From: Opitutaceae bacterium
GTDB lineage: Bacteria > Verrucomicrobiota > Verrucomicrobiia > Opitutales > Opitutaceae
NCBI GenBank assembly: GCA_002694885.1
Contig: NZNM01000149.1
Span: 1-64,000, forward strand
DNA: 64,000 bases
Direction: 5' to 3'
Positions within the stretch are counted from its first letter, which is position 1; the number at the start of each line of letters is the position of its first letter. Positions 3,101-55,267 of the stretch are shown here, in pieces. The notes under the pieces are model-generated. The model had not been told where the DNA came from. It did no database searches and was given only the letters and a program-made list of their open reading frames with translations. A program made the position numbers and the translations under genes.

Positions 3101-3877
3101 AGGAAGAAGCTTATCATCGATTTTGCTGGAAGCGCGAATGAGCAGAACAGCAGCTACAACGCGACCGCTGCTATAGTTACGAGCGCAGTTGTTTACGTAT
3201 TGCGCTTGCTCGCGGGCGATTCCATTCCGTTGAATGAAGGCTTGCTAGACGATGTGGAATTACGAATCCCCGAGGGGATGCTCAATCCTCGATTTCCGTC
3301 TGATCTAACAAAGTGTCCTCCCGTGGTCGCCGGCAACGTAGAAGTGAGTCAACGAATCGTGGATACGCTATTGAAAGCATTCGGTGTATCGGCTTGCAGT
3401 CAAGGAACGATGAACAATTTGATATTCGGAAACGACCAAGCGAGCTATTACGAAACCATCGCGGGTGGAGAGGGCGCCACTAGCGACAAAAGTGGGGCGA
3501 GCGGATTGCATACTCACATGACGAATACGTCGATTACCGACCCAGAGATATTGGAGTGGAGATATCCGGCTCGAGTAGAGCTATTTTCGCTGCGCGCCGA
3601 TTCAGGAGGCAAAGGCGCCCACAATGGTGGGGATGGGTTGCGTCGACGTATACGTTTCACCGAAAACGTAGAAGTATCCCTACTGACCCAACACAGAGTG
3701 CAGGCTCCCTTTGGCATGGAGGGTGGAGAAAACGGGGCGCTAGGAGAACAGTGGAAGGTGACCCTCGACGGTAATCGCTTTTCTATGTCCGGAAGCGAAA
3801 CGCGAACCTTTGAAGCTGGCGAAGCCATTGAAATTCAAACTCCAGGCGGCGGCGGCTTTGGCAGGCGCGAAGGTTAG
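152..3877 (+). CDS. Fused hydantoinase/5-oxoprolinase (HyuA-HyuB type)
   Basis: A 1241-residue cytosolic protein with the two-domain layout of ATP-dependent 5-oxoprolinase, which opens 5-oxo-L-proline to glutamate; related proteins open hydantoins. The HyuA half begins with the phosphate-binding DTGGTFTD motif at residues 7-14 and has a second actin-like motif, FDMGGTSTD, near residue 347. The HyuB half starts around residue 730, with ATNVKERMDFS-like residues (STNVKERMDFS) and GGSHLPD, and ends in the usual glycine-rich tail (PGGGGFG). Length is close to the family norm of about 1250-1300. The ATG at 152 puts the DTGGTFTD motif at the usual distance from the N-terminus. It converges on hrpA with a 20-base gap. 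Oxoprolinase versus hydantoinase cannot be separated by sequence alone. Confidence 0.88.
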   Translation: MWKFWIDTGGTFTDCLAESPEGGELRSKTLSNSAIRGRVLEQLGPRALRIDLPVDVGDDFFAGYNLDLHGRAAAPILIESWRAEESIVFLREDMPELLDQALCSLKSPEEAPLLAIRLLTKRRLNESLPPLEMRLATTRGTNALLEEKGARIAFFVTSGFRDLLRIGDQRRPDLFELGIRKRQPLHDSVFEVEERLNADGEILVELDETALKEQALSCIENGITTGAIAFLHSYRNPDHERRAGEILREAGFDRVSVSSELAPMIKLLPRAETAVVDAYLAPIMGAYLDAVESAVGESRLSVMTSSGGLVSRPRYRPKDSLLSGPAGGVVGASRVGTVAGARRLIAFDMGGTSTDVSRYDGRFDYQFQQTIGNAKVYAPSLRIETVAAGGGSICWYDGAALRVGPESGGASPGPACYGAGGPLTLTDVNLLLGRLDPSEFSIPVFPEAAADRLEEVISEIHSRSEEDLTEQEILKGFLEIANERMADAIRSISLRDGYSPSEYALVAFGGAGGLHACAIADILGMDTILLPSDAGLLSALGLKYSRMEEFSERQILETLSICEIGIPKWIEELESEAKRSLVIQGVSPSDLERETARVELRFQGQEASLLVDWDSSRSLEAAFHEDFKKQYGFLPKQPIEVVSLKVSVATRMPAVDEELFPESLDTQLKSKGFASRDSLHGSWAKGPLSLQDEYSTTYIGDGWKAVLGDRGTVKLARLKEERISQSVDFEAAQLELFTNRYLSLVDEMGRLLERSAFSTNVKERMDFSCALLDAEGFLIANAPHIPVHLGALGVCVRSVCEALDIGPGDIVVTNHPRFGGSHLPDITLVASAFSKDGKRIGFIANRAHHAELGGISPGSMPPRARSLIEEGVVIEPMYLARGGTIDWEPVKSALKNFPFPTRNLQENLSDLAAQLASVRFGVSELEKLISSEGFDRSVGYMRGLKERARLAVAQSINQNLNTDRKVVERLDNGAEIAVSIKTSRKKLIIDFAGSANEQNSSYNATAAIVTSAVVYVLRLLAGDSIPLNEGLLDDVELRIPEGMLNPRFPSDLTKCPPVVAGNVEVSQRIVDTLLKAFGVSACSQGTMNNLIFGNDQASYYETIAGGEGATSDKSGASGLHTHMTNTSITDPEILEWRYPARVELFSLRADSGGKGAHNGGDGLRRRIRFTENVEVSLLTQHRVQAPFGMEGGENGALGEQWKVTLDGNRFSMSGSETRTFEAGEAIEIQTPGGGGFGRREG

Positions 3878-3897: not shown

Positions 3898-6800
3898 TTA
3901 GCTGAACAGCGATTTTAGGCTTTGGAGGTCCGCGTTCGTGGGTTTGTCGATCACCTTGTCGCGCGCTTCGGGCTTGGCGCCTCTGGTTTGCCGAGAGTTT
4001 GATTCACCTGATTTTTGAAACTTTTCCTCAATCCGTTTGGCAGATACAGGGAAAGCAGTGCCTGTTTTTTGAGCGAAAACCGACAATTCATATTCTTCGA
4101 TTGTCCAGGTGAGGTCTTCCTTAATACGAGATGGCGCCTCCAATTTCTGGAGTCGATTGCGAAAAGCATCGATTTCGGATTGCCGCTCCTCATAACGTTG
4201 CGGATCTTTATCCAGGGCCGCCTGACGCATTTTGATCGCTTTCAAGTACAACGGAAGTCGATTGAAAGCCCAATGTGGTGTCCGTTTTAGCAAATCTGGA
4301 GGCGCTAGTCGGTGGATTTCTTTCGCCAATGCTTTAGGCAGTCCTTCGTCTACGATCAACGATTGCCTAATATCCAATATTTCTCTCAATCGATCGATGA
4401 GCTTGTAAGCAAGGCCTCTGGACAATGCTTTCGTTTCGTCTGTCGCCTTTTGAATTCGAATGGGATCTATTGTATCTATATCATGGGAACAGAGAAGTCT
4501 AACTAGATGGTCGTAAGCTTGGTCTTGAATATCCTGTAAGGGCGCAAAGGCTGCGATTGCTGGCCCGATTTTAGCTAGATCACGTAGGTCTTCCTGAATC
4601 CAGGCAAGCTCTCTTCGGAGCTCAATCGCGATTAGCTTTTCAATTCCCATTTGATTGTGGCTACGGGCCTGGTCCAGGTTGTCCATTAGAGACAATCGCA
4701 GTTCGCCAGAGCGAGCGATCAGCACAGGGAACGCCAATACGGGAATTCCGTTACGCTCGCCGATAGTCACCTTTTTCTCATAAGAGCCTAAATCGGAAAG
4801 CTCTCGGACGGGCTTGTCCCACTGTTTTCGAGCCCGTTTCCAAATCTCTACAACAGTCTTTTCATCAGATGAGTTTGATGAGGTTGCTCTGTTATCAATA
4901 ATTTCATGGATACGCTGAGCAGACCGTTCTTCTATTACAGTTTCACCCTTGGAATCATGAACCTGCACACGAACTTGCAAGTGGCGAGGGATCGTGTCGC
5001 CGATCCAGTCACTATCGTAGGTTTCGATGTCGTAGGCAGATTTGAGATACCTTTTCAGGGAATCTTTGAGAGGCAGCCCATCGGATTTTAGATTGGAAGC
5101 AATGATCGCGGCAGTCTGAGACAGAGGCTGCAACCTCCTGCGATGCTCTTTGGGCAATGATTTTAAAAGATGCAGGAGTTTTGATTCCAGGTGTCCGGGA
5201 ACGAGCCAATCAAGAGTAGAGTCATCTACGAACTTCGCTTTTTCATACGGTACACGCAATGTAACGCCGTCGTCTTCCTCTCCCGGCTTGTATTGGTATT
5301 CTATTGGTAATGCGGTATTTTCCAAGGACGTCGTTTCTGGGAAGGCCGAGAGAGACACCGGTTCATCGGGATTCGGAGAGAGATCCTTTTCAGACATGAT
5401 TAGGGATTCCTTCGAATGGTAGCCTGCTCGTTTGAGCCAGCGATTTAGATCGGCCAGAGAGCCTATGCCTTCCAGTTGGCTCTCGTAAAACCGGTAGGCT
5501 GCCTCTTCGATTCCAATCCAACTTTGCATTCGCAAAGTGGTCTGAGCGTTTTGAAAGCGGCTCTTCAGTTTTCGATTTGCGTCTACAAATTCGTAGGGAG
5601 CCTCGAAATCTTCGTTCAGAAGGGCTTCCCGGATGAATATTTCCGTGGCTTCCTTAGGATTTATCTTAACATAGGATACTGATTTGCGTTGTAACTCCAG
5701 TCCGTGGATACGCACGCTTTCCAAGCAGACAACGCGCCCTTGCTGGGCATCAAATCCTGCCTGGCTGTATGAGCGCTTTAGAGCAGCTCCCCCTATCTGG
5801 ACGAGCCAGGTGGGATCGATTGCGGCAACGGTTCGGGCATACAGGCGGCTGGTTTCCACGATTTCCCCGGCAAGAATCCAACTAGGGCTGGGGTATTTGG
5901 TTTCCAGTTCTTTCTTTTGACTCTTGTTTTTCGCGTATAAGGCTTTGCGGTTGAAGAGACCTGAGCCAGGAAATATCATTGCTTTCCGGTTTCCGGTTGA
6001 GAGGTAGATATTCGGCTCTTCCTTTCTGCCAGGGTTGGCTAGCAGTCCGGTAGCTAGCGAGGTATGAATGGCTCGGTACTCGATTCCTCCAAATTTCCGA
6101 AGCTCTGCTTTTTCTTTGAGATTTTTGTATTCGGGAATCCGGTGCGTGATTTTCTGGCGCTTTTCGAACTCGGCCAGAGAACGGCTAATCTGACGCTTTA
6201 CGTCAATCCACTCGCGTATCCGCAAATAGGAAAGAAAGTGCTTTTTACAGAACTTCCTGAGCTTGTTTTGCGTTAGCCGTTCAAATTCATCGTGAGCGGA
6301 TTCCCAAATGTTGAGCAGCGTTAGGAAATCCGATTCGCGATGAACAAATCGCTTGTGGGCCGTTCTAGCAGCTTCCTCTTTCCCCATTGGACGCGCGCGA
6401 GGATCCTGTATGGAAAGAGCGGATGCGATAATGAGAACCTGCTCCACTACACCCTCTCTTTCAGCCTGAAGAAGCATACGTCCAGCAGTTGGGTCGATAG
6501 GCAGTTTTGCTAGCTTTCTCCCGATAGGCGTAAGCTTCCGTCTGTCATCTATAGCTCCAAGCTCTTGCAGCAGAGCGTAGCCCGATTTGATGGCGCCTTG
6601 TGAGGGAGGGTCGATAAAGGGGAAGGTTTCGATTTCTCCCAGCTTGGCCGCTTCCATTCGGAGAATCACCTCTGCCAGGTTTGATCTCTGGATTTCCGGG
6701 ATCGAGAATTCTGTACGCTTATCAAAATCAGACTCTGAATACAGACGTATGCAAATCCCATCTTGGACACGCCCGCAGCGACCTTTGCGTTGATTGGCGC

Positions 6801-7833
6801 TGCTTTGTGAAACCCTTTCTATGGGCAGTCGCTTGATTCGAGCTTTAGGATTGTAGCGACTGGTTCGAGCCAGTCCGGAGTCGACAACGAAACGGATTCC
6901 GGGAATCGTTAGCGACGTTTCAGCAATATTCGTGGCTAAAACGATTTTCCGATACTTGGATGAAGCGAAAATCCGCTGTTGGTCCCCACTGGATAGGCGA
7001 CCGAAGCAAGGAAGGATGTCAAAGCGATTGCCCAACCGGCCTTCCAGCAGATCCCTGGCTTCGAGAATGTCCTTCTCTGTGGGAAGGAAGACGAGAATAT
7101 CCCCTTGTTTGAAGTCTTTAACTATTCTGTCTATCGATTCCGCGACTCCATCGATTACGGTGAAGTCGCCGCTGTCTTCCAGTAGCTCGTCCAGTGGAGC
7201 GTACACCGTTTCAACGGGATAGACCCTTCCTGATACTTCAACGACCGGCGCGTTGCCGAAGGCTTTGGAAAACTTTTCGATGTCGATGGTCGCGGACGTA
7301 ATGATGATCTTGAGATCAGTTCGGCGTTTGCGGAGCTGATTGAGATGGCCTAAAAGAAAGTCGATGTTAAGGCTTCGCTCATGAGCCTCATCGATGATGA
7401 TGGTATCGTACTCCATCATGGATGGATCCGATTGAATCTCCGCGAGGAGCATACCATCGGTCAGAAATTTTATCCGCGTCTCTTTGCTGGTTTCGTCGGC
7501 GAATCGGATTTTGGATCCGACTTCGCGTCCATAATCGACCTTCAACTCCTCCGAAACACGTTTAGCGATAGAGAGCGCTGCAACCCGACGAGGTTGCGTG
7601 CAAGCGATCCGCTTTTTCCATCCTCTTCCTGCATCGAGACACATCTTTGGGATCTGAGTGGTCTTTCCCGAGCCCGTTTCGCCTGAAAGAATGATCACTG
7701 GATGCTCGCGAATGGCATCGATGATTTCATCTCTTCTTTTAGAGATGGGAAGGTCCTGAGGGTATTGGATCGGGCGAGGGTCCCATTTGCGATGGCCGCC
7801 GCCCTTTTGCGTTTTGCGGGCCTTGTTATTCAT
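3898..7833 (-). CDS. hrpA: ATP-dependent RNA helicase HrpA (DEAH box)
   Basis: A 1311-residue protein with the full HrpA layout. The Walker A motif GETGSGKTTQ is at residues 51-60, DEAH is at 148-151, and the TSATID motif follows near 182. The helicase C domain, the HA2/OB-fold region and the long C-terminal DUF3418 region follow, giving the family's usual length of about 1300. HrpA is a 3'-5' RNA helicase that in Escherichia coli rescues stalled or collided ribosomes. It begins 5 bases after the stop codon of the upstream small gene, so it is probably the last gene of an operon with the permease at 9570. No frameshift or missing motif was seen. Confidence 0.93.
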   Translation of the reverse strand: MNNKARKTQKGGGHRKWDPRPIQYPQDLPISKRRDEIIDAIREHPVIILSGETGSGKTTQIPKMCLDAGRGWKKRIACTQPRRVAALSIAKRVSEELKVDYGREVGSKIRFADETSKETRIKFLTDGMLLAEIQSDPSMMEYDTIIIDEAHERSLNIDFLLGHLNQLRKRRTDLKIIITSATIDIEKFSKAFGNAPVVEVSGRVYPVETVYAPLDELLEDSGDFTVIDGVAESIDRIVKDFKQGDILVFLPTEKDILEARDLLEGRLGNRFDILPCFGRLSSGDQQRIFASSKYRKIVLATNIAETSLTIPGIRFVVDSGLARTSRYNPKARIKRLPIERVSQSSANQRKGRCGRVQDGICIRLYSESDFDKRTEFSIPEIQRSNLAEVILRMEAAKLGEIETFPFIDPPSQGAIKSGYALLQELGAIDDRRKLTPIGRKLAKLPIDPTAGRMLLQAEREGVVEQVLIIASALSIQDPRARPMGKEEAARTAHKRFVHRESDFLTLLNIWESAHDEFERLTQNKLRKFCKKHFLSYLRIREWIDVKRQISRSLAEFEKRQKITHRIPEYKNLKEKAELRKFGGIEYRAIHTSLATGLLANPGRKEEPNIYLSTGNRKAMIFPGSGLFNRKALYAKNKSQKKELETKYPSPSWILAGEIVETSRLYARTVAAIDPTWLVQIGGAALKRSYSQAGFDAQQGRVVCLESVRIHGLELQRKSVSYVKINPKEATEIFIREALLNEDFEAPYEFVDANRKLKSRFQNAQTTLRMQSWIGIEEAAYRFYESQLEGIGSLADLNRWLKRAGYHSKESLIMSEKDLSPNPDEPVSLSAFPETTSLENTALPIEYQYKPGEEDDGVTLRVPYEKAKFVDDSTLDWLVPGHLESKLLHLLKSLPKEHRRRLQPLSQTAAIIASNLKSDGLPLKDSLKRYLKSAYDIETYDSDWIGDTIPRHLQVRVQVHDSKGETVIEERSAQRIHEIIDNRATSSNSSDEKTVVEIWKRARKQWDKPVRELSDLGSYEKKVTIGERNGIPVLAFPVLIARSGELRLSLMDNLDQARSHNQMGIEKLIAIELRRELAWIQEDLRDLAKIGPAIAAFAPLQDIQDQAYDHLVRLLCSHDIDTIDPIRIQKATDETKALSRGLAYKLIDRLREILDIRQSLIVDEGLPKALAKEIHRLAPPDLLKRTPHWAFNRLPLYLKAIKMRQAALDKDPQRYEERQSEIDAFRNRLQKLEAPSRIKEDLTWTIEEYELSVFAQKTGTAFPVSAKRIEEKFQKSGESNSRQTRGAKPEARDKVIDKPTNADLQSLKSLFS

Positions 7834-7837
7834 CGAT

Positions 7838-8311
7838 TCAGGATCTAGATTGGCTAGTCCAGTTCGCGAGCGCGCGCTTCCATTCTTGATCGTTGGGGAA
7901 TGATTCGCAGCTCCAATTTATCTCGCCATCGGCATCGATCAATACCATGCGGTCTGCGCCTCTAAATTCGGGGCCGAGCACAGTGGAGTGGGACTTCATG
8001 AAATCCTGCTTAAGCAGTTTGGCAGCGGCTCGTCGCTTGAGGTTGTCGGACTGCTCCCAGGCGAAATTGATCACCCAAAATGCGTTTTTCTGCGTATTGG
8101 CCAAGGTGGCGCATCTTAGAGCTTCCTTAAGATCATCTGGAGAATGAGATGTAATTATGAATACGGGCCACTGCTTTACGGAAACGGCTTCGCCTAAAAA
8201 CGATTCGAATTGGAACTCATCGCTAGCGATTCCTTTGGGTACGTTTGTCCCGACAAGGATTAAGCTGAGCAGGGCGATCTGCCCCAATGGAGGTTTGGAT
8301 CGAATCATCAC
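7838..8311 (-). CDS. Small secreted protein, possibly thioredoxin-fold (DUF4174-like)
   Basis: A 157-residue protein with an N-terminal hydrophobic segment (ALLSLILVGTNV) ending in a plausible signal-peptidase site, so probably exported. The mature part has alternating strand and helix segments such as VFIITSH and DRMVLIDADGEINW. This resembles the thioredoxin-like DUF4174 group, but no CXXC pair is present, so a redox reaction is unlikely. The start codon overlaps the stop of the metal-efflux permease by four bases (ATGA), and hrpA follows after 4 bases, so translation is probably coupled to the permease. A role beside metal efflux is only an inference from this position. Confidence 0.55.
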   Translation of the reverse strand: MMIRSKPPLGQIALLSLILVGTNVPKGIASDEFQFESFLGEAVSVKQWPVFIITSHSPDDLKEALRCATLANTQKNAFWVINFAWEQSDNLKRRAAAKLLKQDFMKSHSTVLGPEFRGADRMVLIDADGEINWSCESFPNDQEWKRALANWTSQSRS

Positions 8312-45580: not shown

Positions 45581-46732
45581 CTACTCGAAAAGCTCCGCCA
45601 GTTTCGACTCAAGCGCTTCGCCTCTTAGATTTCTGGCGATGATGCGCCCGTCAGGGTCCACAAGAAAGCTCATGGGCAGGGCGTTTACGTTGTAGGCGGC
45701 GGCAAGCGGAGATTTCCAACCCAGAGAATCCGAGATTTGCGGCCAAACCACGCGATCTCGCTTAGAAGCCATCTCCCAGATTTGTCGGCTATCATCCAGA
45801 TTAACGGCGAAGATTGCGAAAGGCTGGTCCGCATATTTTGGCAAAAGTTTATTGTAAAGACGGTTCTCGACTCGACAGGGAACGCACCAGGAAGCCCAGA
45901 AATCCACTAGCACATATTTGCCGCGAAAATCGGACAAAGCGTATGGTTGCCCATCCAGAGATTTACCCGAAATGGGAGAACCGACGGCTCCGATTGCGGT
46001 GCGAGCGAATCGCTCGAGTCGCGACTGCATGCTCGAGGTGATAGCGAGTTCGGGCCGGATTTCGGCGAAGGCGCCTACTTTTGCTTGAAGTTCTTCTAGA
46101 CGATAGTCGGGGTCCCAGCGGAGCGAGGTGGCGTAGAGGGCGATCGTTTTTCCGACCTGCTCGATACTGAAGTCATTGAGTTCGCGCCGGTGGGCTGCGT
46201 AGCCTTGAACTTCCGCTTTGGCGAGGCGGGTCATCAGCTCGGGTGGGGCATTGGGGTCCTCTTTGGCGGCGTTCAGCTCTGCCCGAGGAGGGTAAACGAG
46301 ACGGTTGAGCGAGTCCTTGCGAAACGCCTCATAGGCTTGCAGATCGATCGTATCGGGAGACCCAGTCACTGAGTAGCTGTTCGAATGGGCGTTGACCCCG
46401 ATGCTTTGATCTTGATCGATTGCCAGTCCCAGAGTCTGGCCGTTGGGGAGTTCCAAAGAGAAGAGGCCTGGCTCGCCAGAGAAAACTTCTCGAAATCTGC
46501 CATTTGTTGCTACCAAAAGGCGACCTTCCTCGGATTTCGCGTTCGAATCGATATCGACCCGGCTCAGGATGAGTTCCGTTCCGGCTGCGACACTCCCGAT
46601 GTTTCCTGAAATCGTGAAGCCTGCCCAAGCAGGTTGGGCGAGGGTGGCGAAAACCAGAAACGCCGCTTGGAAAAAGCCGCCGGCTTCGACTCCAAGGGAA
46701 ATTTTTAGTCTGTGTGAAAGAGAACGAACCAT
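45581..46732 (-). CDS. TlpA-like thiol-disulfide oxidoreductase with DUF4369-type N-terminal domain
   Basis: A 383-residue exported protein. The signal peptide ends near AQPAWAGF. Residues 40-150 look like the beta-rich DUF4369-type domain (ISGNIGSVAAGTELILSRV). The C-terminal redoxin domain (about 245-383) has the WASWCVPCR active site and NALPMSFLVDPDG, where the Pro is the cis-Pro. Such proteins reduce disulfides in the periplasm, for example for cytochrome c assembly. It is divergent from the PIG-L gene, with 149 bases between. Partner reductant is not in the window. Confidence 0.82.
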   Translation of the reverse strand: MVRSLSHRLKISLGVEAGGFFQAAFLVFATLAQPAWAGFTISGNIGSVAAGTELILSRVDIDSNAKSEEGRLLVATNGRFREVFSGEPGLFSLELPNGQTLGLAIDQDQSIGVNAHSNSYSVTGSPDTIDLQAYEAFRKDSLNRLVYPPRAELNAAKEDPNAPPELMTRLAKAEVQGYAAHRRELNDFSIEQVGKTIALYATSLRWDPDYRLEELQAKVGAFAEIRPELAITSSMQSRLERFARTAIGAVGSPISGKSLDGQPYALSDFRGKYVLVDFWASWCVPCRVENRLYNKLLPKYADQPFAIFAVNLDDSRQIWEMASKRDRVVWPQISDSLGWKSPLAAAYNVNALPMSFLVDPDGRIIARNLRGEALESKLAELFE

Positions 46733-46881: not shown

Positions 46882-49434
46882 ATGCCAATCAAACCTTCTC
46901 TATGCATTGCCGCATTCTTCGCCAGTTTCGGAGCAGCTGCTTGGGCCCAAATGATGAGTCCCTCTGAGATACTGCAGGAAATTTCCAAACTCGAGCGGGT
47001 GGGATCGGTTTTGCATGTGGCTGCCCACCCGGATGACGAAAATACGACGTTGCTCACCTATTTAGCCCAAGAAGAGCGGCTCGAGACGGCTTATTTGTCA
47101 CTGACACGTGGCGGTGGTGGCCAGAATCTCATTGGTTCAGAGCTCAAGGAGGAACTAGGGCTGATTCGCGCCAATGAGCTTCTGCAAGCCCGAAAAATCG
47201 ATGGAGCCAGCCAGTTGTTCACCCGAGCCCGGGACTTTGGCTATTCCAAGGGGCCCGAGGACACGCTGGAGAATTGGGAAGAGGACGAGGTCCTTGGCGA
47301 TGTCGTTTATGCAGTTCGTTATTTCGAGCCTGACATAATTATTACCCGATTCAATCCCGCTGCCGGACCCACGCACGGGCACCACACGGTTTCCGCCCAA
47401 TTGGCATTGAGAGCTTTCAGGCTAGCTGCAGATCCAAACGCATTTCCCGAACAGCTCAAAGAATTGGATACGCATCAGGCAAAACGGATCCTTTGGAACG
47501 GCTTCGGCCGGAGGCGCGGTGGTCGGGGTGGTCCACCTAGCTCCAATCTTCAAGCTGAATCAAGGGAGATCGTGAATCTCGAGATCGGCGCCTACAATCC
47601 CCTTTTGGGAGAATCCTACACGGAGATTTCCGCCCGTAGCCGAAGCATGCATAAAAGCCAAGGTTTTGGCCGAGCGGGCAGACGCGGATCGCAGATGGAA
47701 CGGCTAGTATTGCTGGATGGGGAACACGCTGAAGGGGACTTTCTCAGGGGCGTGAATACGTCATGGGAACAATATCCCGATGGAGTCTCCATTTCTAATC
47801 GTATTCAAGATTTAAAAACGAGTTTCGATGTACTTGCTCCGTGGCAGTCGCTTCCCGATTTGCTAGAATTGGATGTTGCATTGCAAGGTTTGCCAGATTC
47901 CCGCTTCACCCAGCGAAAACGGTCTCAGCTAAGGCGAATAATCGCGGCTTCCATGGGATTGCACATAGAGGCGAGGAACCAGAGCGCTTATCTTTTACCG
48001 GGTAGCGACGTCGAAATTACCGTGGAGGTTGTCAATCGAGCCCCTGTAGAGGCTCGCCTGATAGAGTTGGAGGCCATCTATTTTGACAGCTCTGTTTGGC
48101 CCAATCGCAAATCGTTGAGCCGTAAGGAAAATTTGGATATAGTGCTTTCAGCGAACCAGGTAGAGACTGTTCCATTGGAAACCAGCTTGCCCGCAGGCTT
48201 TCCGTATACGCGGCCCTATTGGCTAGAAGAAGCTCCTAGTATCGGGATCTACCAGCTAGCGAATCGCCGATTGCTGGAAGCAGAGTCTTTGCCCGATCCT
48301 ATTTCGATCACCGCGAAGGTCGAGATCGACAACCAGGTTGTTGAGTTGGATGTTCCTCTGATTAAAGTGACGAGCGATCCGGTCAAAGGAGAGGTTCGCG
48401 AGCCAGTAGCGATTCGCCCAGCTCTGGCATTAATGCCGGAAAGCGCGGTGACGCTTTTTGAAGACGGTCGATCCAAGGAGATCGCGGTTCGCGTTACCAC
48501 CAATCGCGATTCGATCTCCGGCATGTTGGAAGCTCGTGTCCCGAGCGACTGGAAGGTTGAAGTGGCCAATCCAAAGTTTTCTCTTAGTGGTGAAGGGGAT
48601 TCGAAACTGATTTTAGCCCGCGTGACGCCTCCGGAAACGTCCTCGGAAGGGATCCTCGCATTTAGCGCGGTTTCCACAGACGGTATGCGCTTTGATTCGA
48701 GTCTCAAGGAGATCTACTATGATCATATTGGCCGACATCCGCTGCTGCGCAAAGCCGAGACGAAGTTGACTCGATTGGAGTTGAGCCGGGCAGGGACAAG
48801 AATCGCTTGCGTTCTTGGAGTGGGAGATACGGTTCCGGATACGCTTGATCGAATCGGCTATACGGTTGATCGGCTTTCCGTTGATGAAATTACCGAGGAA
48901 GCGATCGCAGGTTTCGACACAGTGATTTTGGGTCCTCGTGTCTTCGACGCCTTTTTAGGACTGGACAAGAAGTTTGACGCCTTGCTGGAATACGTGGAGC
49001 GTGGCGGCACTTTGATATCCCAATACAATACCACGAGTTTCAGGGCGAAATCGAGATTCACGTCGCCGTTTCCGATCAGGCTTTCTCGCGAGCGGGTTTC
49101 CGAGGAAAAGGTTCCCATGAAGATTCTCAATCCTGAGCATCCCGTGTTCAATTTCCCCAATCGAATTTCTGATAATGACTTTGATAATTGGATACAAGAG
49201 CGCGGCCTCTATTTTGCCAGTAGTTGGGACGAAGCTTATGAGCCGCTGCTTTCAGCCAACGATAGAGGCGAGCCACCGAGGAATGGGGGACTCTTGGTTG
49301 CCCGCTATGGAAAGGGCTGGTATGCTTATACGGGTCTTTCGTTTTTTCGCCAATTGCCGGAGGGTAATCCTGGAGCGATTCGGCTCTTCGTTAATTTAAT
49401 CTCGCTAGGACATGGAACCGGATCCGAAAATTGA
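46882..49434 (+). CDS. Large exported PIG-L/LmbE-type deacetylase
   Basis: An 850-residue protein with a signal peptide (LCIAAFFASFGAAAWA). The PIG-L domain at about 30-260 has the zinc motif AAHPDDE and the third ligand His in PTHGHHTVS. A long beta-rich middle part follows, then a C-terminal part with ALLEYVERGGTLISQYN, a GATase/ThuA-like fold start. LmbE-type enzymes remove acetyl groups from N-acetyl sugars. The length (about 850) is typical for these Verrucomicrobia/Bacteroidota giants. It ends with a 23-base overlap with the start of a small membrane protein. It is upstream of a second PIG-L gene, bshB. Confidence 0.78.
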   Translation: MPIKPSLCIAAFFASFGAAAWAQMMSPSEILQEISKLERVGSVLHVAAHPDDENTTLLTYLAQEERLETAYLSLTRGGGGQNLIGSELKEELGLIRANELLQARKIDGASQLFTRARDFGYSKGPEDTLENWEEDEVLGDVVYAVRYFEPDIIITRFNPAAGPTHGHHTVSAQLALRAFRLAADPNAFPEQLKELDTHQAKRILWNGFGRRRGGRGGPPSSNLQAESREIVNLEIGAYNPLLGESYTEISARSRSMHKSQGFGRAGRRGSQMERLVLLDGEHAEGDFLRGVNTSWEQYPDGVSISNRIQDLKTSFDVLAPWQSLPDLLELDVALQGLPDSRFTQRKRSQLRRIIAASMGLHIEARNQSAYLLPGSDVEITVEVVNRAPVEARLIELEAIYFDSSVWPNRKSLSRKENLDIVLSANQVETVPLETSLPAGFPYTRPYWLEEAPSIGIYQLANRRLLEAESLPDPISITAKVEIDNQVVELDVPLIKVTSDPVKGEVREPVAIRPALALMPESAVTLFEDGRSKEIAVRVTTNRDSISGMLEARVPSDWKVEVANPKFSLSGEGDSKLILARVTPPETSSEGILAFSAVSTDGMRFDSSLKEIYYDHIGRHPLLRKAETKLTRLELSRAGTRIACVLGVGDTVPDTLDRIGYTVDRLSVDEITEEAIAGFDTVILGPRVFDAFLGLDKKFDALLEYVERGGTLISQYNTTSFRAKSRFTSPFPIRLSRERVSEEKVPMKILNPEHPVFNFPNRISDNDFDNWIQERGLYFASSWDEAYEPLLSANDRGEPPRNGGLLVARYGKGWYAYTGLSFFRQLPEGNPGAIRLFVNLISLGHGTGSEN

Positions 49435-49570: not shown

Positions 49571-51265
49571 ATGAATCCTATCGATATCGCTACAATCGGG
49601 GTTACGCTTGTCGCCATAGTATTTTTTGGAGTTTGGAAAACTCGGAACGATCGCAAGCTGGATGAGTTCCTGAAAGGAAGTTCCAACAGCTGGGGAACGA
49701 TTGGCTTGTCGGTGATGGCTACTCAGGCCAGCGCCATTACTTTCCTTTCTACGCCAGGCTTAGCCTACGATAGCGGTATGGCGTTCGTGCAAAACTACTT
49801 CGGTATGCCGCTGGCCCTTATCCTGATAGCGGTCGTGTTCGTGCCTATGTACTATAAGCTCGAGCTTTGTTCAGTGTATGAGTTTCTTGAGCATCGGTTC
49901 GACTCCAAGACTCGAACACTGGGTAGCGCGATCTTTCTAATCCAACGAGGATTTTCAGCCGGGATAACGATATACGCGCCTTCGATTATTCTTACCAGCG
50001 TTTTGGGCTGGGACATGAATACTACGGTTATTGGAGTTGGGCTTGCCGTCATTCTTTATACGGTTACAGGAGGCTCGCACGCGGTGAGCGTTACCCATAA
50101 GTATCAAATGACAGTGATTCTAACCGGGATGGCTATAGCATTCGGGATAGTTGTATACAAAATCATGGGACACGCGGGATTTCGGGAGAATCTCAGCATT
50201 GCGGGAGCATTAGGGCATTTGAACGTAGTGGATCTTTCGTTTGATTTGAACAAGCGATATACGATTTGGTCTGGTTTGCTTGGAGGATTCTTCCTTTCCT
50301 TGTCTTACTTCGGCACGGACCAATCTCAGGCCCAGCGTTACATGTCTGGGCAATCGGTTCGCGAAAGCCGCCTTGGGCTAATGTTCAACGCCTTGCTCAA
50401 GGTCCCCATGCAGTTTCTGATACTTCTGCTAGGCGTGTTGGTATTCGTTTTTTATCAATGGGAGCGGCCGCCAGCGACTTTTTTGCCGTCGTCTATGACG
50501 GATATGGCCGAATCGGCAGATGCCAACGCTTACCGTGAATACAAGCTTCGGTTCGAAGATCGGTTCCAAGAACAAAAGATTGCTATCGATGGCTACGTTG
50601 AGGCTTTGAGAAATGGAGGCGGCTCAGCCGCTCAGGCGTCCAAGGAAGAACTGCAAAATGCTAGCTTGGCAGTTAAAGAGGCCCGGTCTCAGCTCAAAGG
50701 CCACATCGCCCGTACGACTGGCCAGGAAAGCATGAAGGAAACCGATTACGTCTTTATACATTTCGTTCTCAATGAATTGCCGATCGGCTTAATAGGACTG
50801 CTGATCGCGGTTATTTTGAGCGCGGCAATGTCATCGACGGCTTCCGAGCTGAGCGCCCTGGCTACTATCACTACGGTGGATTTTTATCAGAATCACTTCG
50901 TGAAAGATCGGGACGAGCGGCACTACATGAAGGCGTCCAGGACGTTTACGGCCATGTGGGGAGGGTTGGCTATCCTCTTCGCCTTGTTTGCCAGCATGGT
51001 AGAGAGCTTGATTGAAGCGGTAAATATTGTTGGCTCACTATTTTACGGAACGGTGCTGGGGCTGTTCCTGGCCGCGTTCTTCATTAGAAGAATCGGCGCC
51101 CATGCAGCGTTTATCGCGGCTATCATTGCTCAGCTTTCTGTCCTGTTGCTGTATTTCACTGATCTCGTTCAGATCGGCTATTTGTGGTATAACCTGATAG
51201 CCTGCGCTCTGGTAATCGTTATCAGTTACTCGATACAACTGGTGATCGGTAAAAAGGAGGTTTAG
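49571..51265 (+). CDS. Sodium:solute symporter (SSS family)
   Basis: A 564-residue inner-membrane symporter with about 13 segments. Typical SSS features are SVMATQASAITFLSTPG in the second segment, AQRYMSGQS, and AAMSSTASELSALATITTVDFYQ. Between two segments, about residues 300-395, lies a charged region rich in Lys, Glu and Gln (KLRFEDRFQEQKIAIDG, SKEELQNASLAVKEARS), probably a cytoplasmic coiled coil. The usual substrates are sugars, acids or vitamins; this one is unclear. Its stop codon TAG shares a base with the GTG start of the bshC-like gene, so the two are translationally coupled. Confidence 0.85.
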   Translation: MNPIDIATIGVTLVAIVFFGVWKTRNDRKLDEFLKGSSNSWGTIGLSVMATQASAITFLSTPGLAYDSGMAFVQNYFGMPLALILIAVVFVPMYYKLELCSVYEFLEHRFDSKTRTLGSAIFLIQRGFSAGITIYAPSIILTSVLGWDMNTTVIGVGLAVILYTVTGGSHAVSVTHKYQMTVILTGMAIAFGIVVYKIMGHAGFRENLSIAGALGHLNVVDLSFDLNKRYTIWSGLLGGFFLSLSYFGTDQSQAQRYMSGQSVRESRLGLMFNALLKVPMQFLILLLGVLVFVFYQWERPPATFLPSSMTDMAESADANAYREYKLRFEDRFQEQKIAIDGYVEALRNGGGSAAQASKEELQNASLAVKEARSQLKGHIARTTGQESMKETDYVFIHFVLNELPIGLIGLLIAVILSAAMSSTASELSALATITTVDFYQNHFVKDRDERHYMKASRTFTAMWGGLAILFALFASMVESLIEAVNIVGSLFYGTVLGLFLAAFFIRRIGAHAAFIAAIIAQLSVLLLYFTDLVQIGYLWYNLIACALVIVISYSIQLVIGKKEV

Positions 51266-52044
51266 TGTCGGATCCTGTTATTTGCTTCGGGCAGCAGCCT
51301 TGCGGAATTTTCCCGAATCGATTCCTGTTTGCCAAGATCAAGACTGCCAAGCGATTGCAGAGGGAGATGGGCGGAAAGGTAGTGTTTTTCGTGCACGACA
51401 GCGATCATGATCACCGGGAAACTTGCGCCTCTCTGGTCAACCGGCATACGGGCAAGACAGAGAGATTGAATTTCGAAGTTTCCAATAAAATCCAAAAGTT
51501 GTATTCACCCTTGTATTGCAAGACCATCAAGTCCGGCTGGAAGGATAAGACTAAACGCTGCCTACCCAATTTGGTAGACCGCGAACTTGTATATGCGTTT
51601 GCCTCTGTGGAAACCGACAATGTCGCCGATTTCTGTTTAGATTTGTATAAGAGAATGGGATTGCTAGAAGGTGTAGAGTTGCAGCGATCAAGCGATCCAA
51701 GGTTTAGAGAGGCGGCTATTGATATCGACGATTATTTTGTGGATACAGCTTACAAGGGAGAGATTGTGAGAGCTCGATATCGCGATGGGAAGTACGGTCT
51801 TTTTAAAGGAGGAGGCCGCTACATCGATGTGGAAGTGGTGGAAGTCACGAAAAAGATGATCAGCCCGACCCGAGATACGCGGCTAAAGTGGATGCAATCC
51901 GTCATACGTTGTACGCATTACGTTGCAGGAGCAGGCGAGATTCAGTATTTGAATCAATCGGATGCCCCAGAGATCGAGTTTGTGAAGCGTGATTATATTG
52001 AAAACTCGGGAGATGCCTATGCAGAGTGTCGACATGACTGGTAA
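51265..52044 (+). CDS. bshC-like: Compact BshC-like protein, 259 aa (putative bacillithiol cysteine-adding enzyme)
   Basis: A 259-residue cytosolic protein. Its N-terminus has GQQPCGIF (GQQ at residues 9-11), then a Lys/Ala helix (FAKIKTAKRLQREMGG) and VVFFVHDSDHDHRE (45-51). This is the order and spacing of the BshC start, where GQQxG, K...AI.LA and VFW...DDHD occur. The C-terminus has YVAGAGEIQYL (about 221-231), like the BshC GGPGEI.Y motif. Known BshC enzymes are about 540 residues; this one lacks the long coiled-coil and central part. It sits directly before bshB and bshA. Start GTG overlaps the symporter stop. Assignment rests on motif and context, and activity is not proven. Confidence 0.6.
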   Translation: MSDPVICFGQQPCGIFPNRFLFAKIKTAKRLQREMGGKVVFFVHDSDHDHRETCASLVNRHTGKTERLNFEVSNKIQKLYSPLYCKTIKSGWKDKTKRCLPNLVDRELVYAFASVETDNVADFCLDLYKRMGLLEGVELQRSSDPRFREAAIDIDDYFVDTAYKGEIVRARYRDGKYGLFKGGGRYIDVEVVEVTKKMISPTRDTRLKWMQSVIRCTHYVAGAGEIQYLNQSDAPEIEFVKRDYIENSGDAYAECRHDW

Positions 52045-52747
52045 GCGAATCCTAGCTTTTGGAGCTCATCCCGACGATATTGAGTTCGGTTGTGGAGCCG
52101 TATTGCTCGATGCGGCGGAGAAAGGGGCGGCGATCGATTTGGTTGTTCTATCCCGAGGAGAGGCAGGAACCCATGGCAATCGCTCCGTGCGGGAGAAGGA
52201 GGCCATGAAAGCGGCTGAAATGATCGGGGCTCAAGTACAGTTTCCGTCTACCGCAGGAGACACCCGCCTCCGGTCGGACTTGGAGATCACATTGATGGCA
52301 GCCAAGACGATTCGGCGGTGTCTGCCCGACTTTATCCTAGCGCCTTCTGGCCACTTGAACCAGCATCCAGATCATCGGGAAACGAGCATTATTGCTCGGG
52401 ATGCTAATCGGCTGGCCCGGTATGGAAAGACCCCGGGGCTGGAAGGACTAGATCCGCATGCCACGCAAGCCCTTTTGTTCTACGATATTTCTAGCGAGTC
52501 GCTTGGAGGGGATGGGATGATTCCCTTCCTAGTCGATGTCTCGAGTCAGGCTGAACGCTGGAAAGACCTCATGGCCTGCCATGAAAGCCAAACTGGGAAT
52601 CTGGATTATGTGGATCTGCAATTGTCGCGAGCTCGGACACTAGGCATTCAATCTGGTGTCAGATATGCTGTTCGCCTGTATTCGGAAGGCCCTCTCATCT
52701 GGAGTTCTTTAGCTGGGGTCGCCGAAGCTAAAGCCCCAAGGCTGTAA
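52019..52747 (+). CDS. bshB: Bacillithiol deacetylase BshB (PIG-L family)
   Basis: A 242-residue zinc deacetylase. AHPDDIEFG (residues 16-24) provides zinc ligands and HPDHRET near residue 120 the third His. In bacillithiol synthesis it removes acetate from GlcNAc-malate. The preferred start ATG 52019 has GGGAGA at a good distance, while an ATG at 52034 would shorten it by five residues. It overlaps the end of the BshC-like gene by 26 bases. BshA follows after 14 bases, so three pathway genes are tightly packed. Confidence 0.82.
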   Translation: MQSVDMTGKRILAFGAHPDDIEFGCGAVLLDAAEKGAAIDLVVLSRGEAGTHGNRSVREKEAMKAAEMIGAQVQFPSTAGDTRLRSDLEITLMAAKTIRRCLPDFILAPSGHLNQHPDHRETSIIARDANRLARYGKTPGLEGLDPHATQALLFYDISSESLGGDGMIPFLVDVSSQAERWKDLMACHESQTGNLDYVDLQLSRARTLGIQSGVRYAVRLYSEGPLIWSSLAGVAEAKAPRL

Positions 52748-52761
52748 TTGGGTTCCGGCTT

Positions 52762-53892
52762 ATGGAGGGTAAACTGAATATTGCGCTGCTTTGCCACCCT
52801 ACAGTTGGAGGTAGTGGTATTTTGGCTACGGAATTGGGGCATCGTCTCGCCGAGTTGGGCCATAGCGTTTATGTGGTTTCTGAGCGTCCGCCCTTTCGTC
52901 TAGACGACAGTCATCCGAATATCCATTTCTGCGAATCGACACCTGTTGAATTTCCATTGTTCAAGAGCCCAGACCACACCTTGCCCTTCGCTACAAGAAT
53001 CGCTGATGTTTGCCGGAATCATCGGATCGATATTATGCACGCTCATTACGCCATCCCCCATACGGCTGCGGCCTGGATCGCCAAGGAGCTAATTGGGGAA
53101 GCGTCGCCGCCAACGGTCACGACGCTCCACGGCACGGACATTATTTATCTGGGTGCGAAAGAAGAGTATAGGCCATTGCTTCAACACGTGCTCAATGCTT
53201 CGGACCGAGTTACCTGCGTTTCTAAAAATCTGAAAGAGCGAACCGAAGCCCTCTTTTCACTGGAGCAGGAGATTGCGGTTATCCCGAATTTCTATGAGCC
53301 AAAGCCGGTGTCCAGAGATAGAGATCAAGTGAGAGCCCCGTTGGATTGTGGAGATATTCCGTTGGCCATACACGCTTCGAATTTGAGAACGATAAAGCGG
53401 GTCGACCTTCTGTTGGAAGGTTTCAAGAGGGCCTTGAACCAATGCGATGCTAGACTGTTGATCTTGGCTGGGGCTGACGCCACCCGTATAGAGCCGGAAA
53501 TCCAGAAACGGGATTTGCAGGACAAGGTGATTATCGAAAGTGGTGTGTATGATGTGGATGAATACTACGCGGCTGCGGATTTCACACTCTTTTCGTCGGA
53601 ATATGAAAGTTTCTGCCTTGGGATCCTCGAAGGAATGCGCCACGGAAAACCGAGTGTTTCCTTCGAAGTTGGAGGGATACCTGAGGTGGTCGAGGCCAAC
53701 GAAACCGGATTGCTCGCGCCCTTTGGAGATGTTGATGCACTGGGGAAAGCGATCGCGTCTCTCGCGAACGATTCCGAGCTTCGAAAGCGTATGGGCAAGA
53801 AAGCGGAACAGCGGGCGCGGGAGCAGTTCTCGGCTGAAACTGTAGTTGACGCCTACCTCGATATTTACTGGCAGGAATTGGCGCGAGCGTAG
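52762..53892 (+). CDS. bshA: N-acetyl-alpha-D-glucosaminyl L-malate synthase BshA (GT4)
   Basis: A 376-residue GT-B glycosyltransferase, whose family joins UDP-GlcNAc and L-malate in the first bacillithiol step. The N-terminal CHPTVGGSGILATELG loop with SERPPFRL matches BshA closely. TLHGTDI, YESFCLGILEGM and SFEVGGIPEVV are the donor-site motifs. Length and motif order agree with BshA of Bacillus and Bacteroidota. It is the last gene of a symporter-bshC-like-bshB-bshA group. The start ATG at 52762 follows bshB by 14 bases. Confidence 0.86.
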   Translation: MEGKLNIALLCHPTVGGSGILATELGHRLAELGHSVYVVSERPPFRLDDSHPNIHFCESTPVEFPLFKSPDHTLPFATRIADVCRNHRIDIMHAHYAIPHTAAAWIAKELIGEASPPTVTTLHGTDIIYLGAKEEYRPLLQHVLNASDRVTCVSKNLKERTEALFSLEQEIAVIPNFYEPKPVSRDRDQVRAPLDCGDIPLAIHASNLRTIKRVDLLLEGFKRALNQCDARLLILAGADATRIEPEIQKRDLQDKVIIESGVYDVDEYYAAADFTLFSSEYESFCLGILEGMRHGKPSVSFEVGGIPEVVEANETGLLAPFGDVDALGKAIASLANDSELRKRMGKKAEQRAREQFSAETVVDAYLDIYWQELARA

Positions 53893-54559: not shown

Positions 54560-55267
54560 CTAAAGTTTGGCCTCCAGAGCTTCTCTGGCTATGACACCCG
54601 AATGGCGCCAGGTTTCCTGGCCCTTTTCGAAAAGAATAAAAACAGGCACGCCTTCAATCGCGTAGGCTTCAGCCAGCTCAGGGCTAGCATCAATATCGAT
54701 ACGCAAGATGCGGGCGCGATCGGACAATTCGTATTCGAGGGCATCGATAATAGGGACCATTTGCTTGCAGGGAGCGCACCATTCGGTCTGAAAATCGACG
54801 AGTACCCGGTCATTATTTCGTAATTGTTTTTTGAAGTCAGCCAAGGAAATCCCGGGCGCCTTTTTAACGCTTCCTCCATCCGGTATAATGGTGGGCAAAT
54901 TAGCTCGGTTCCAGGCCCCCATACCACCTTCGAGATTGTAAACTTCGCTAAATCCATTCTCCCCCATGATCTGGGCGGCACGTGAGCTGCGTCCTCCTGA
55001 TCGACAATAGACGTAGATTGGCTTGTCCTTCTGCATCAGATTCAACTTCCGCTCGAAGTCTTCGTCATAGATGTTGAGCATGCTAGCCCCGGAGATATGT
55101 CCTTGAGCTATCTCGTCAGGCGTGCGCACATCGAGAATGATGCCATTGTTCTGAGCGACCAGCTCCTGAAATTCAGTGACAGACACGTCTTCAATTTTGG
55201 TTTCCGCAATCGCCGTAGCGATACTCAACATGGCGGCGACAACTAGTTTAGCGTTTCGTACATTCAT
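54560..55267 (-). CDS. Exported rhodanese-thioredoxin fusion
   Basis: A 235-residue protein. A signal peptide (AKLVVAAMLSIATAIA) is followed by a rhodanese domain (about 25-125) with the catalytic loop CRSGGRSS. A thioredoxin domain (about 140-235) has the active site TEWCAPCKQM and the cis-Pro in EGVPVFILF. The joint fold suggests sulfur or disulfide handling in the periplasm, such as sulfane sulfur transfer or thiol repair. It is convergent with the preceding hypothetical gene and divergent from the aldo/keto reductase gene. Confidence 0.85.
   Translation of the reverse strand: MNVRNAKLVVAAMLSIATAIAETKIEDVSVTEFQELVAQNNGIILDVRTPDEIAQGHISGASMLNIYDEDFERKLNLMQKDKPIYVYCRSGGRSSRAAQIMGENGFSEVYNLEGGMGAWNRANLPTIIPDGGSVKKAPGISLADFKKQLRNNDRVLVDFQTEWCAPCKQMVPIIDALEYELSDRARILRIDIDASPELAEAYAIEGVPVFILFEKGQETWRHSGVIAREALEAKL

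What the first reader, a model, noticed from the sequence alone, without database searches (positions are those of the whole stretch)
51265..53892. Bacillithiol-type operon with a half-size BshC-like protein
Seen: bshB and bshA motifs are clear, and directly in front a 259-residue protein has GQQPCGI at the start, DSDHDHRE and a closing GAGEIQYL, all in the order of BshC. Known: BshC is about 540 residues with a long coiled coil. Inference: a compact cysteine-adding enzyme, or a related enzyme that adds another group and so makes a different thiol.
Basis: partly seen in the sequence, partly recalled or inferred. Interest (0 to 1): 0.82.

Follow-up and report, generated by a model that had tools for sequence, protein, structure and literature searches.

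The report
Half-size bacillithiol ligase in Verrucomicrobia
Many Verrucomicrobia, a large group of soil and water bacteria with no documented or predicted glutathione-like protective thiol in a 2018 survey, carry a bacillithiol gene set whose cysteine-adding enzyme has shrunk to half the usual size and so goes unrecognised by standard annotation; this predicts which thiol they make and gives a minimal version of an enzyme whose chemistry was still unproven when last reviewed (2015).

Summary
A 259-residue ORF (51265-52044) sits between a sodium:solute symporter and bshB-bshA, with overlapping genes. It belongs to a conserved family: 107 near-full-length sequences examined, nearly all 253-262 aa, and 248 places in GTDB. 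No curated model names it, since BshC models hit it only below cut-off (E about 6e-4). Homology to BshC is nevertheless solid. Profile-profile comparison aligns 222 columns (E 1e-5). The AlphaFold model (pLDDT 95) matches the BshC crystal structure 4WBD as the only significant PDB hit (E 1.8e-10). It keeps the Rossmann core and the GQQ, DHDxxE and GxxExxY motifs, and lacks the C-terminal coiled coil and about half of the insertions.

In 241 Verrucomicrobiota genomes bshA occurs in 16: 14 have mini-BshC, 2 have full BshC, none has both. No full BshC was found in 50 further mini-BshC genomes. Mini-BshC therefore replaces BshC.

Beyond the finding, a secreted Mca-like PIG-L hydrolase (850 aa) with a neighbouring symporter tracks bacillithiol genes, also in Acidobacteriota with full BshC (52/71 versus 2/48). 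Seventeen mini-BshC genomes lack a recognisable bshB, and none of the 14 sampled has YpdA.

Most likely it is a compact BshC making bacillithiol. A different product is not excluded. Chemistry is untested.

The parts
46882..49434 (+). PIGL850: 850-aa PIG-L/LmbE hydrolase that looks secreted (hydrophobic N-terminus ending AAWA|Q, judged by eye), with Mca-like catalytic domain (HPDD at 49-52, H165/H168 invariant) followed by further beta-rich and mixed domains
   Evidence: Pfam PF02585 3.8e-14; TIGR03446 Mca in 38/38 members; A5 invariants; AF2 pLDDT 88, catalytic part like chitobiose deacetylases 4xm1/3wl4; present in all 14 mini-BshC genomes of the phylum sample
49571..51265 (+). Sodium:solute symporter (564 aa)
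   Evidence: TIGR00813 214.9 bits, over cut-off 184; PDB relatives SMCT1, NIS, SGLT; next to PIGL850 in all but one (G030) of the genomes whose wide regions were examined
51255..51260 (+). Shine-Dalgarno AGGAGG in front of mini-BshC
   Evidence: sequence
51265..52044 (+). mini-BshC, 259 aa: the compact BshC-like protein of the finding
51289..51306 (+). GQQPCG motif (residues 9-14), aligned with GQQxG of BshC
51394..51420 (+). HDSDHDHRE motif (residues 44-52), aligned with xxEDHDxxE of BshC
51880..51897 (+). RLKWMQ (residues 206-211), aligned with RPxxQ of BshC
51910..51948 (+). CTHYVAGAGEIQY (residues 216-228), aligned with the GPxExxY end of the BshC core; Cys216 and His218 are particular to the mini form
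52019..52747 (+). BshB-type PIG-L deacetylase (start taken at ATG 52019, overlapping mini-BshC by 26 bases)
   Evidence: TIGR04001 8.2e-35, Pfam PIG-L 2.3e-21; PDB hits 1uan and 6p2t, the latter named GlcNAc-malate deacetylase 1
52762..53892 (+). BshA, GlcNAc-malate synthase (376 aa)
   Evidence: TIGR03999 351.6 bits over cut-off 273.7; PDB 2jjm 6e-76 and 5d00 1.2e-74

Best explanation
The 259-residue protein is a compact form of BshC that has kept the Rossmann core and the conserved motifs and has lost the C-terminal coiled coil and part of the insertions. With BshA (UDP-GlcNAc + malate to GlcNAc-Mal) and BshB (to GlcN-Mal) it completes bacillithiol synthesis by joining cysteine to the amine of GlcN-Mal. 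It does this in organisms that have no full-length BshC. The two genes in front are a partner module of bacillithiol metabolism. PIGL850, a Mca-like hydrolase outside the cytoplasm, probably splits the glucosamine amide of exported bacillithiol S-conjugates (or a related glucosamine amide), and the sodium symporter brings the product back for reuse by mini-BshC. Shown here: family, fold, gene order, replacement pattern and co-occurrence. Inferred: the cysteine-ligase reaction, bacillithiol as product, and the whole role of the PIGL850-symporter pair.
For: BshC profile alignment over 222 columns with E 1e-5, and E 1.4e-6 against the ~390-aa Acidobacterial short BshC; unrelated control E 0.13. 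AF2 pLDDT 95.3. Foldseek: 4WBD BshC E 1.8e-10, probability 1.00, then class I aminoacyl-tRNA synthetases at 3e-3. BshC-invariant residues GQQ, K, DHD..E, Q, G..E..Y are kept. In 241 Verrucomicrobiota genomes, BshA in 16 equals mini-BshC in 14 plus full BshC in 2 (Fisher 7e-21 for mini against BshA, genomes not independent). No full BshC in 50 mini-BshC genomes or in the host. Full BshC operons share the C-B-A order in several cases. BshA of mini operons lies on one side of a 100% branch. PIGL850 tracks bacillithiol genes in two phyla. Bacillithiol-conjugate amidase (Bca) and Mca are known LmbE-type enzymes that return the amino-sugar to thiol synthesis, shown for Mca and presumed for Bca (PMC4101496).
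Against: No activity has been measured, and even canonical BshC had no in vitro activity when reviewed in 2015 (PMC4360819). YpdA, the bacillithiol disulfide reductase, is over cut-off in the two full-BshC genomes but in none of the 14 mini-BshC genomes. bshB has no detectable relative in 17 mini-BshC genomes. Residues beside the DHD motif differ (HDSDHD against xxEDHD), and Cys13, Cys124, Cys216 and His218 are particular to the mini form, so specificity could have changed. The coiled coil said to be needed for dimerisation of BshC is missing.
Confidence: 0.62

Rival explanations
1. Mini-BshC acts on the same kind of glucosaminyl-malate acceptor but adds something other than cysteine, or acts on a modified acceptor, giving a new thiol or a non-thiol metabolite whose handling involves the secreted hydrolase and symporter.
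For: No YpdA in mini-BshC genomes; no detectable bshB relative in 17 of 17 genomes of the B-less type, with 2 of 2 positive controls found; residues particular to the mini form around the active-site motifs.
Against: BshA scores well over the GlcNAc-malate synthase cut-off, and most mini operons retain bshB. PIGL850 is equally linked to full-length BshC in Acidobacteriota, so it does not mark a different product. YpdA is also scarce in other lineages credited with bshA and bshC (archaea, PMC7278568).
Confidence: 0.2
2. In the B-less genomes the pathway runs through the outside: GlcNAc-Mal is exported, deacetylated by secreted PIGL850, re-imported by the symporter and then joined to cysteine by mini-BshC.
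For: PIGL850 is the only pathway-linked PIG-L protein near the genes there, and it has an intact HPDD + His metal motif. The PIGL850-symporter pair stays next to mini-BshC.
Against: The module is also kept where bshB is present and in full-BshC genomes. Another, more diverged PIG-L deacetylase in the cytoplasm could substitute, and no exporter is linked.
Confidence: 0.12
3. Mini-BshC is a degenerate, inactive remnant of BshC, kept as a scaffold or regulator.
For: It lacks about half of the BshC length.
Against: Near-constant length in nearly all of 107 sequences, with dozens of invariant residues including the motif residues; confident compact fold; never found together with a full BshC.
Confidence: 0.04
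4. Ordinary, chance resemblance: an unrelated Rossmann protein with BshC-like short motifs.
For: Single-sequence HMM scores are below the curated cut-offs.
Against: The only significant PDB fold match is BshC, the profile alignment is collinear, and it shares an operon with bshB and bshA.
Confidence: 0.02

Closest known systems
BshC (YllA), bacillithiol synthase, PF10079 / TIGR03998, structure 4WBD
   Same: Rossmann core, motif order GQQ...K, DHDxxE, R..Q, GxxExxY, position next to bshB and bshA, one per genome
   Different: 259 aa instead of about 520-570; no C-terminal coiled coil; shorter insertions; residues particular to it (Cys13, His44, Cys124, Cys216, His218); below both curated cut-offs
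Short BshC of about 390-410 aa in some Acidobacteriota (L175-L183) and 442 aa (L184), found here
   Same: BshC family with reduced length, next to bshB; closest profile match to mini-BshC
   Different: Keeps a C-terminal segment after GPxExxY; does not carry the Cys/His residues of the mini form; separate lineage
MshC (mycothiol cysteine ligase) and CysRS
   Same: Class I synthetase-like fold, cysteine joined to a glucosamine amine (MshC)
   Different: No sequence match found here; zinc-dependent cysteine binding is established for those enzymes (own knowledge) and only conjectural here
Mca / Bca thiol S-conjugate amidases (LmbE superfamily)
   Same: PIG-L catalytic domain with HPDD + His motif; Mca is the best NCBIfam match for the window PIGL850 and matches all 38 members
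   Different: PIGL850 looks secreted, is about 850 aa with extra domains, scores far below the Mca cut-off, and is paired with a sodium symporter

Membership tests
BshC (PF10079 / TIGR03998) | Score over the curated cut-off | tested here: not met
   19.7 against 27 bits (Pfam) and 18.6 against 265.8 bits (NCBIfam); only 15/58 and 11/58 members match at E up to 0.1
BshC (PF10079 / TIGR03998) | Homologous Rossmann core, same fold | tested here: met
   hhalign E 1e-5 over 222 columns; Foldseek 4WBD E 1.8e-10, probability 1.00
BshC (PF10079 / TIGR03998) | Invariant motif residues GQQ, K, DHD..E, Q, G..E..Y | tested here: met
BshC (PF10079 / TIGR03998) | About 540 aa with C-terminal coiled coil (dimerisation) | tested here: not met
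   259 aa; the protein ends shortly after the GxxExxY motif; no long helix pair in the model
BshC (PF10079 / TIGR03998) | Adds cysteine to GlcN-malate | not testable with these tools
   needs biochemistry
Bacillithiol biosynthesis pathway | bshA present (TIGR03999 over cut-off) | tested here: met
   351.6 against 273.7 bits; all 14 mini-BshC genomes
Bacillithiol biosynthesis pathway | bshB present | tested here: inconclusive
   Present in the window, but TIGR04001 is below its cut-off; no detectable relative in 17 genomes of the B-less type
Bacillithiol biosynthesis pathway | No second, full-length BshC that would make the gene redundant | tested here: met
   none in the host or in 50 genomes
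Bacillithiol redox cycle | YpdA bacillithiol disulfide reductase | tested here: not met
   0 of 14 mini-BshC genomes over cut-off, 2 of 2 full-BshC Verrucomicrobiota over cut-off
Mca/Bca (for PIGL850) | Score over Mca cut-off | tested here: not met
   41.5 against 277.15 bits; so 'Mca-like', not Mca

The most novel reading that the evidence does not exclude
Mini-BshC makes a low-molecular-weight thiol (or non-thiol conjugate) other than bacillithiol, in a pathway that in some lineages runs without a cytoplasmic BshB and uses the secreted PIGL850 hydrolase and sodium symporter as working steps. This would be a new thiol system for Verrucomicrobiota and Obscuribacterales.
Probability: 0.22. Interest if true: 0.88.

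Novelty: new variant of a known kind. Interest (0 to 1): 0.73.

Why it matters
A 2018 survey stated that Verrucomicrobia, Planctomycetes and Spirochaetes have no documented or predicted low-molecular-weight thiol (PMC6282198), and a 2025 survey required similar length and over 80% coverage of BshC (PMC12719100), so it would miss this form. If mini-BshC is a ligase, a part of Verrucomicrobiota (14 of 241 sampled genomes, concentrated in the host's family and order), plus some Obscuribacterales and Acidobacteriota, gain a predicted thiol. The chemistry of BshC was unresolved when reviewed in 2015 (PMC4360819); a natural version showing which half is dispensable would make it easier to test. The PIGL850-symporter module suggests bacillithiol handling outside the cytoplasm, which I did not find described.

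Tried and rejected
A phmmer search of the PDB with the single protein gave only chance hits, and an hmmsearch with the family profile gave none, so the BshC link rests on profile-profile and fold comparison. hhalign against only two full BshC sequences was uninformative (E 0.097); it became significant with 25. A pseudogene/remnant reading was rejected because of constant length and invariant residues. A frameshift splitting a normal BshC was rejected: the same length recurs in over a hundred loci. Plasmid records hold no mini-BshC. The full text of the BshC structure paper was not held, so ADP- and citrate-contact residues could not be mapped. Bacteroidota, where I recall similar neighbours from memory, could not be reached.
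Full report
OBSERVATION. The ORF at 51265-52044 (+) is 259 codons, starts at GTG with AGGAGG 4 bases upstream, and overlaps the preceding symporter gene by one base; bshB begins inside its 3' end and bshA follows 14 bases after bshB. Single-sequence searches give only sub-threshold BshC matches (PF10079 E 6.1e-4, 19.7 bits against a cut-off of 27; TIGR03998 E 7e-4). BshA is over its curated cut-off (351.6 against 273.7 bits). BshB matches TIGR04001 at 8.2e-35, below its cut-off.

A REAL FAMILY. A scan of GTDB species genomes found 248 places encoding relatives, of which 80 were kept. The near-full-length copies (107 over, some of them the same gene reached twice) are nearly all 253-262 aa, the longest 273. 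Residues Gly9-Gln10-Gln11-Pro12, Lys24, His44, Asp45, Asp47, His48, Glu52, Arg206, Gln211, Gly222, Glu225 and Tyr228 are invariant in these 107, and Cys13, Asp49 and His218 in all but one each. Carriers are mostly Verrucomicrobiota (Opitutales, Chthoniobacterales/Spartobacteria, Limisphaerales and others), some Obscuribacterales, and scattered records labelled Acidobacteria or Gemmatimonadetes; cultured carriers include Pelagicoccus, Coraliomargarita, strain DG1235 and Opitutaceae EW11. At E up to 0.1 only 15 of 58 members match the Pfam BshC model and 11 of 58 the NCBIfam one; the window protein is below both cut-offs.

HOMOLOGY TO BshC. Profile-profile comparison with 25 full-length BshC sequences aligns 222 columns from the GQQ motif to the GxxExxY motif (E 1e-5), and with seven shortened Acidobacterial BshC sequences E is 1.4e-6. 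An unrelated profile gives 0.13. The AlphaFold model has mean pLDDT 95.3. Against the PDB its only match below E 0.001 is 4WBD, B. subtilis BshC (E 1.8e-10, probability 1.00); class I aminoacyl-tRNA synthetases follow at 3e-3. Full BshC invariants GQQ, K104, D133-H134-D135, E138, Q338, G350, E353 and Y356 fall on mini-BshC GQQ, K24, D47-H48-D49, E52, Q211, G222, E225 and Y228; spacing is identical for GQQ-to-K, within DHDxxE and within GxxExxY. What is missing is the region after GxxExxY (the coiled coil) and about half of the material between the motifs.

REPLACEMENT OF FULL BshC. In one sample of 241 Verrucomicrobiota genomes BshA is over cut-off in 16, mini-BshC is present in 14 and full BshC over cut-off in 2; the 14 and the 2 are disjoint and together equal the 16. 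Fisher's exact p for mini-BshC against BshA is 7e-21, with the caveat that the genomes are related. The host genome (97% complete) has no full BshC, and 50 further genomes carrying mini-BshC have none either. Full BshC operons in Acidobacteriota and in the two other Verrucomicrobiota show the same C-B-A order in several cases. On a BshA tree all 34 mini-operon BshA lie on one side of a 100%-supported branch and all 6 full-BshC BshA on the other; Obscuribacterales sequences nest among Verrucomicrobiota, which suggests transfer of the set (small sample, long branches).

TWO COMPANION GENES. Directly upstream, 46882-49434 encodes an 850-aa PIG-L protein that looks secreted, and 49571-51265 a sodium:solute symporter. 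PIGL850 proteins start with signal-like sequences (by eye), have the HPDD plus His metal motif invariant, and all 38 scanned match the Mca model of NCBIfam; the window protein lies far below that model's cut-off. The model (pLDDT 88) matches LmbE deacetylases in its catalytic part. PIGL850 occurs in 15 of the 241 Verrucomicrobiota genomes: all 14 with mini-BshC plus G173, which has full BshC. In 119 Acidobacteriota genomes it occurs in 52 of 71 with BshC-type hits and 2 of 48 without (Fisher 3.5e-15; genomes not independent), and one of those two exceptions (G546) turned out to carry mini-BshC, bshA, PIGL850 and the symporter together (L245). The symporter is next to PIGL850 in every wide region examined except in G030, where PIGL850 lies apart from the other genes. 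The pair is thus linked to bacillithiol genes in general, and in mini-BshC operons it has merged with them. I found no paper that describes it (open-access library only).

WHAT DOES NOT FIT SIMPLY. In Chthoniobacterales-type operons and in one Obscuribacterales genome bshB is not between C and A, and no relative of the window's BshB was found in 17 of 17 such genomes at E 1e-8, while two control genomes were positive. A diverged PIG-L deacetylase could do the step. YpdA is over cut-off in the two full-BshC genomes and in none of the 14 mini-BshC genomes. Mini-BshC has residues that BshC lacks: HDSDHD in place of xxEDHD, and Cys13, Cys124, Cys216 and His218.

MECHANISM. Best reading: BshA makes GlcNAc-malate, BshB deacetylates it, and mini-BshC joins cysteine to the free amine, the core with GQQ, DHD and GxxE motifs being sufficient. 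PIGL850 and the symporter would recover the amino-sugar part from exported S-conjugates, by analogy with Mca and Bca (PMC4101496). Shown: family, fold, order, replacement, co-occurrence. Inferred: all chemistry. Canonical BshC itself had no demonstrated in vitro activity at the time of a 2015 review (PMC4360819).

PLACE AMONG KNOWN THINGS. It works like BshC in context and has the BshC core; it fails the curated score cut-offs and the length/coiled-coil feature, so I call it a compact variant related to BshC and not a standard member. A 2018 survey listed Verrucomicrobia among lineages with no documented or predicted low-molecular-weight thiol (PMC6282198), and a 2025 survey filtered on length and coverage (PMC12719100). 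Acidobacteriota also hold a ~390-410-aa BshC form (L175-L183), so BshC size varies more than the usual figure of about 540 suggests.

VERDICT. Observation confirmed; interpretation partly supported (compact BshC yes, changed product open). New variant of a known kind, interest 0.73.

Noticed in passing
L175-L183 (about 6600-8200), L184:5750-7078: Acidobacteriota genomes carry a shortened BshC of about 390-410 aa (and one of 442 aa) next to bshB; a second reduced form of BshC.
   Followed up: partly
L067:31-576, L246:1027-1869: A DUF2911 protein lies in front of or near the PIGL850-symporter pair in an Obscuribacterales and an Acidobacteriota locus (PF11138); other loci have similar-looking upstream ORFs.
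   Followed up: partly
L112:738-1493, L113:699-1496: In the two Verrucomicrobiota genomes with full BshC a SAM-dependent methyltransferase directly precedes bshC; possibly an NmbA-like N-methyl-bacillithiol synthase, not tested.
   Followed up: no
window 54560-55267 (-) and 45581-46732 (-): A rhodanese-thioredoxin fusion with signal-like N-terminus (Pfam hits) and, by eye, a TlpA/thioredoxin-like protein flank the operon.
   Followed up: partly
L067, L070, L077, L088, L094, L111: Obscuribacterales (Melainabacteria) carry the same operon; those put on the BshA tree nest among Verrucomicrobiota: likely horizontal transfer of the set.
   Followed up: partly
G093, G102, G030 and others (L194-L196): Long open frames of about 760-820 codons contain a YpdA-like stretch (E 1e-36 to 1e-48, below cut-off) in several Verrucomicrobiota, with or without bacillithiol genes.
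   Followed up: no
window 152-3874 (+): By eye a hydantoinase/5-oxoprolinase-type protein (DTGGTFTD start).
   Followed up: no
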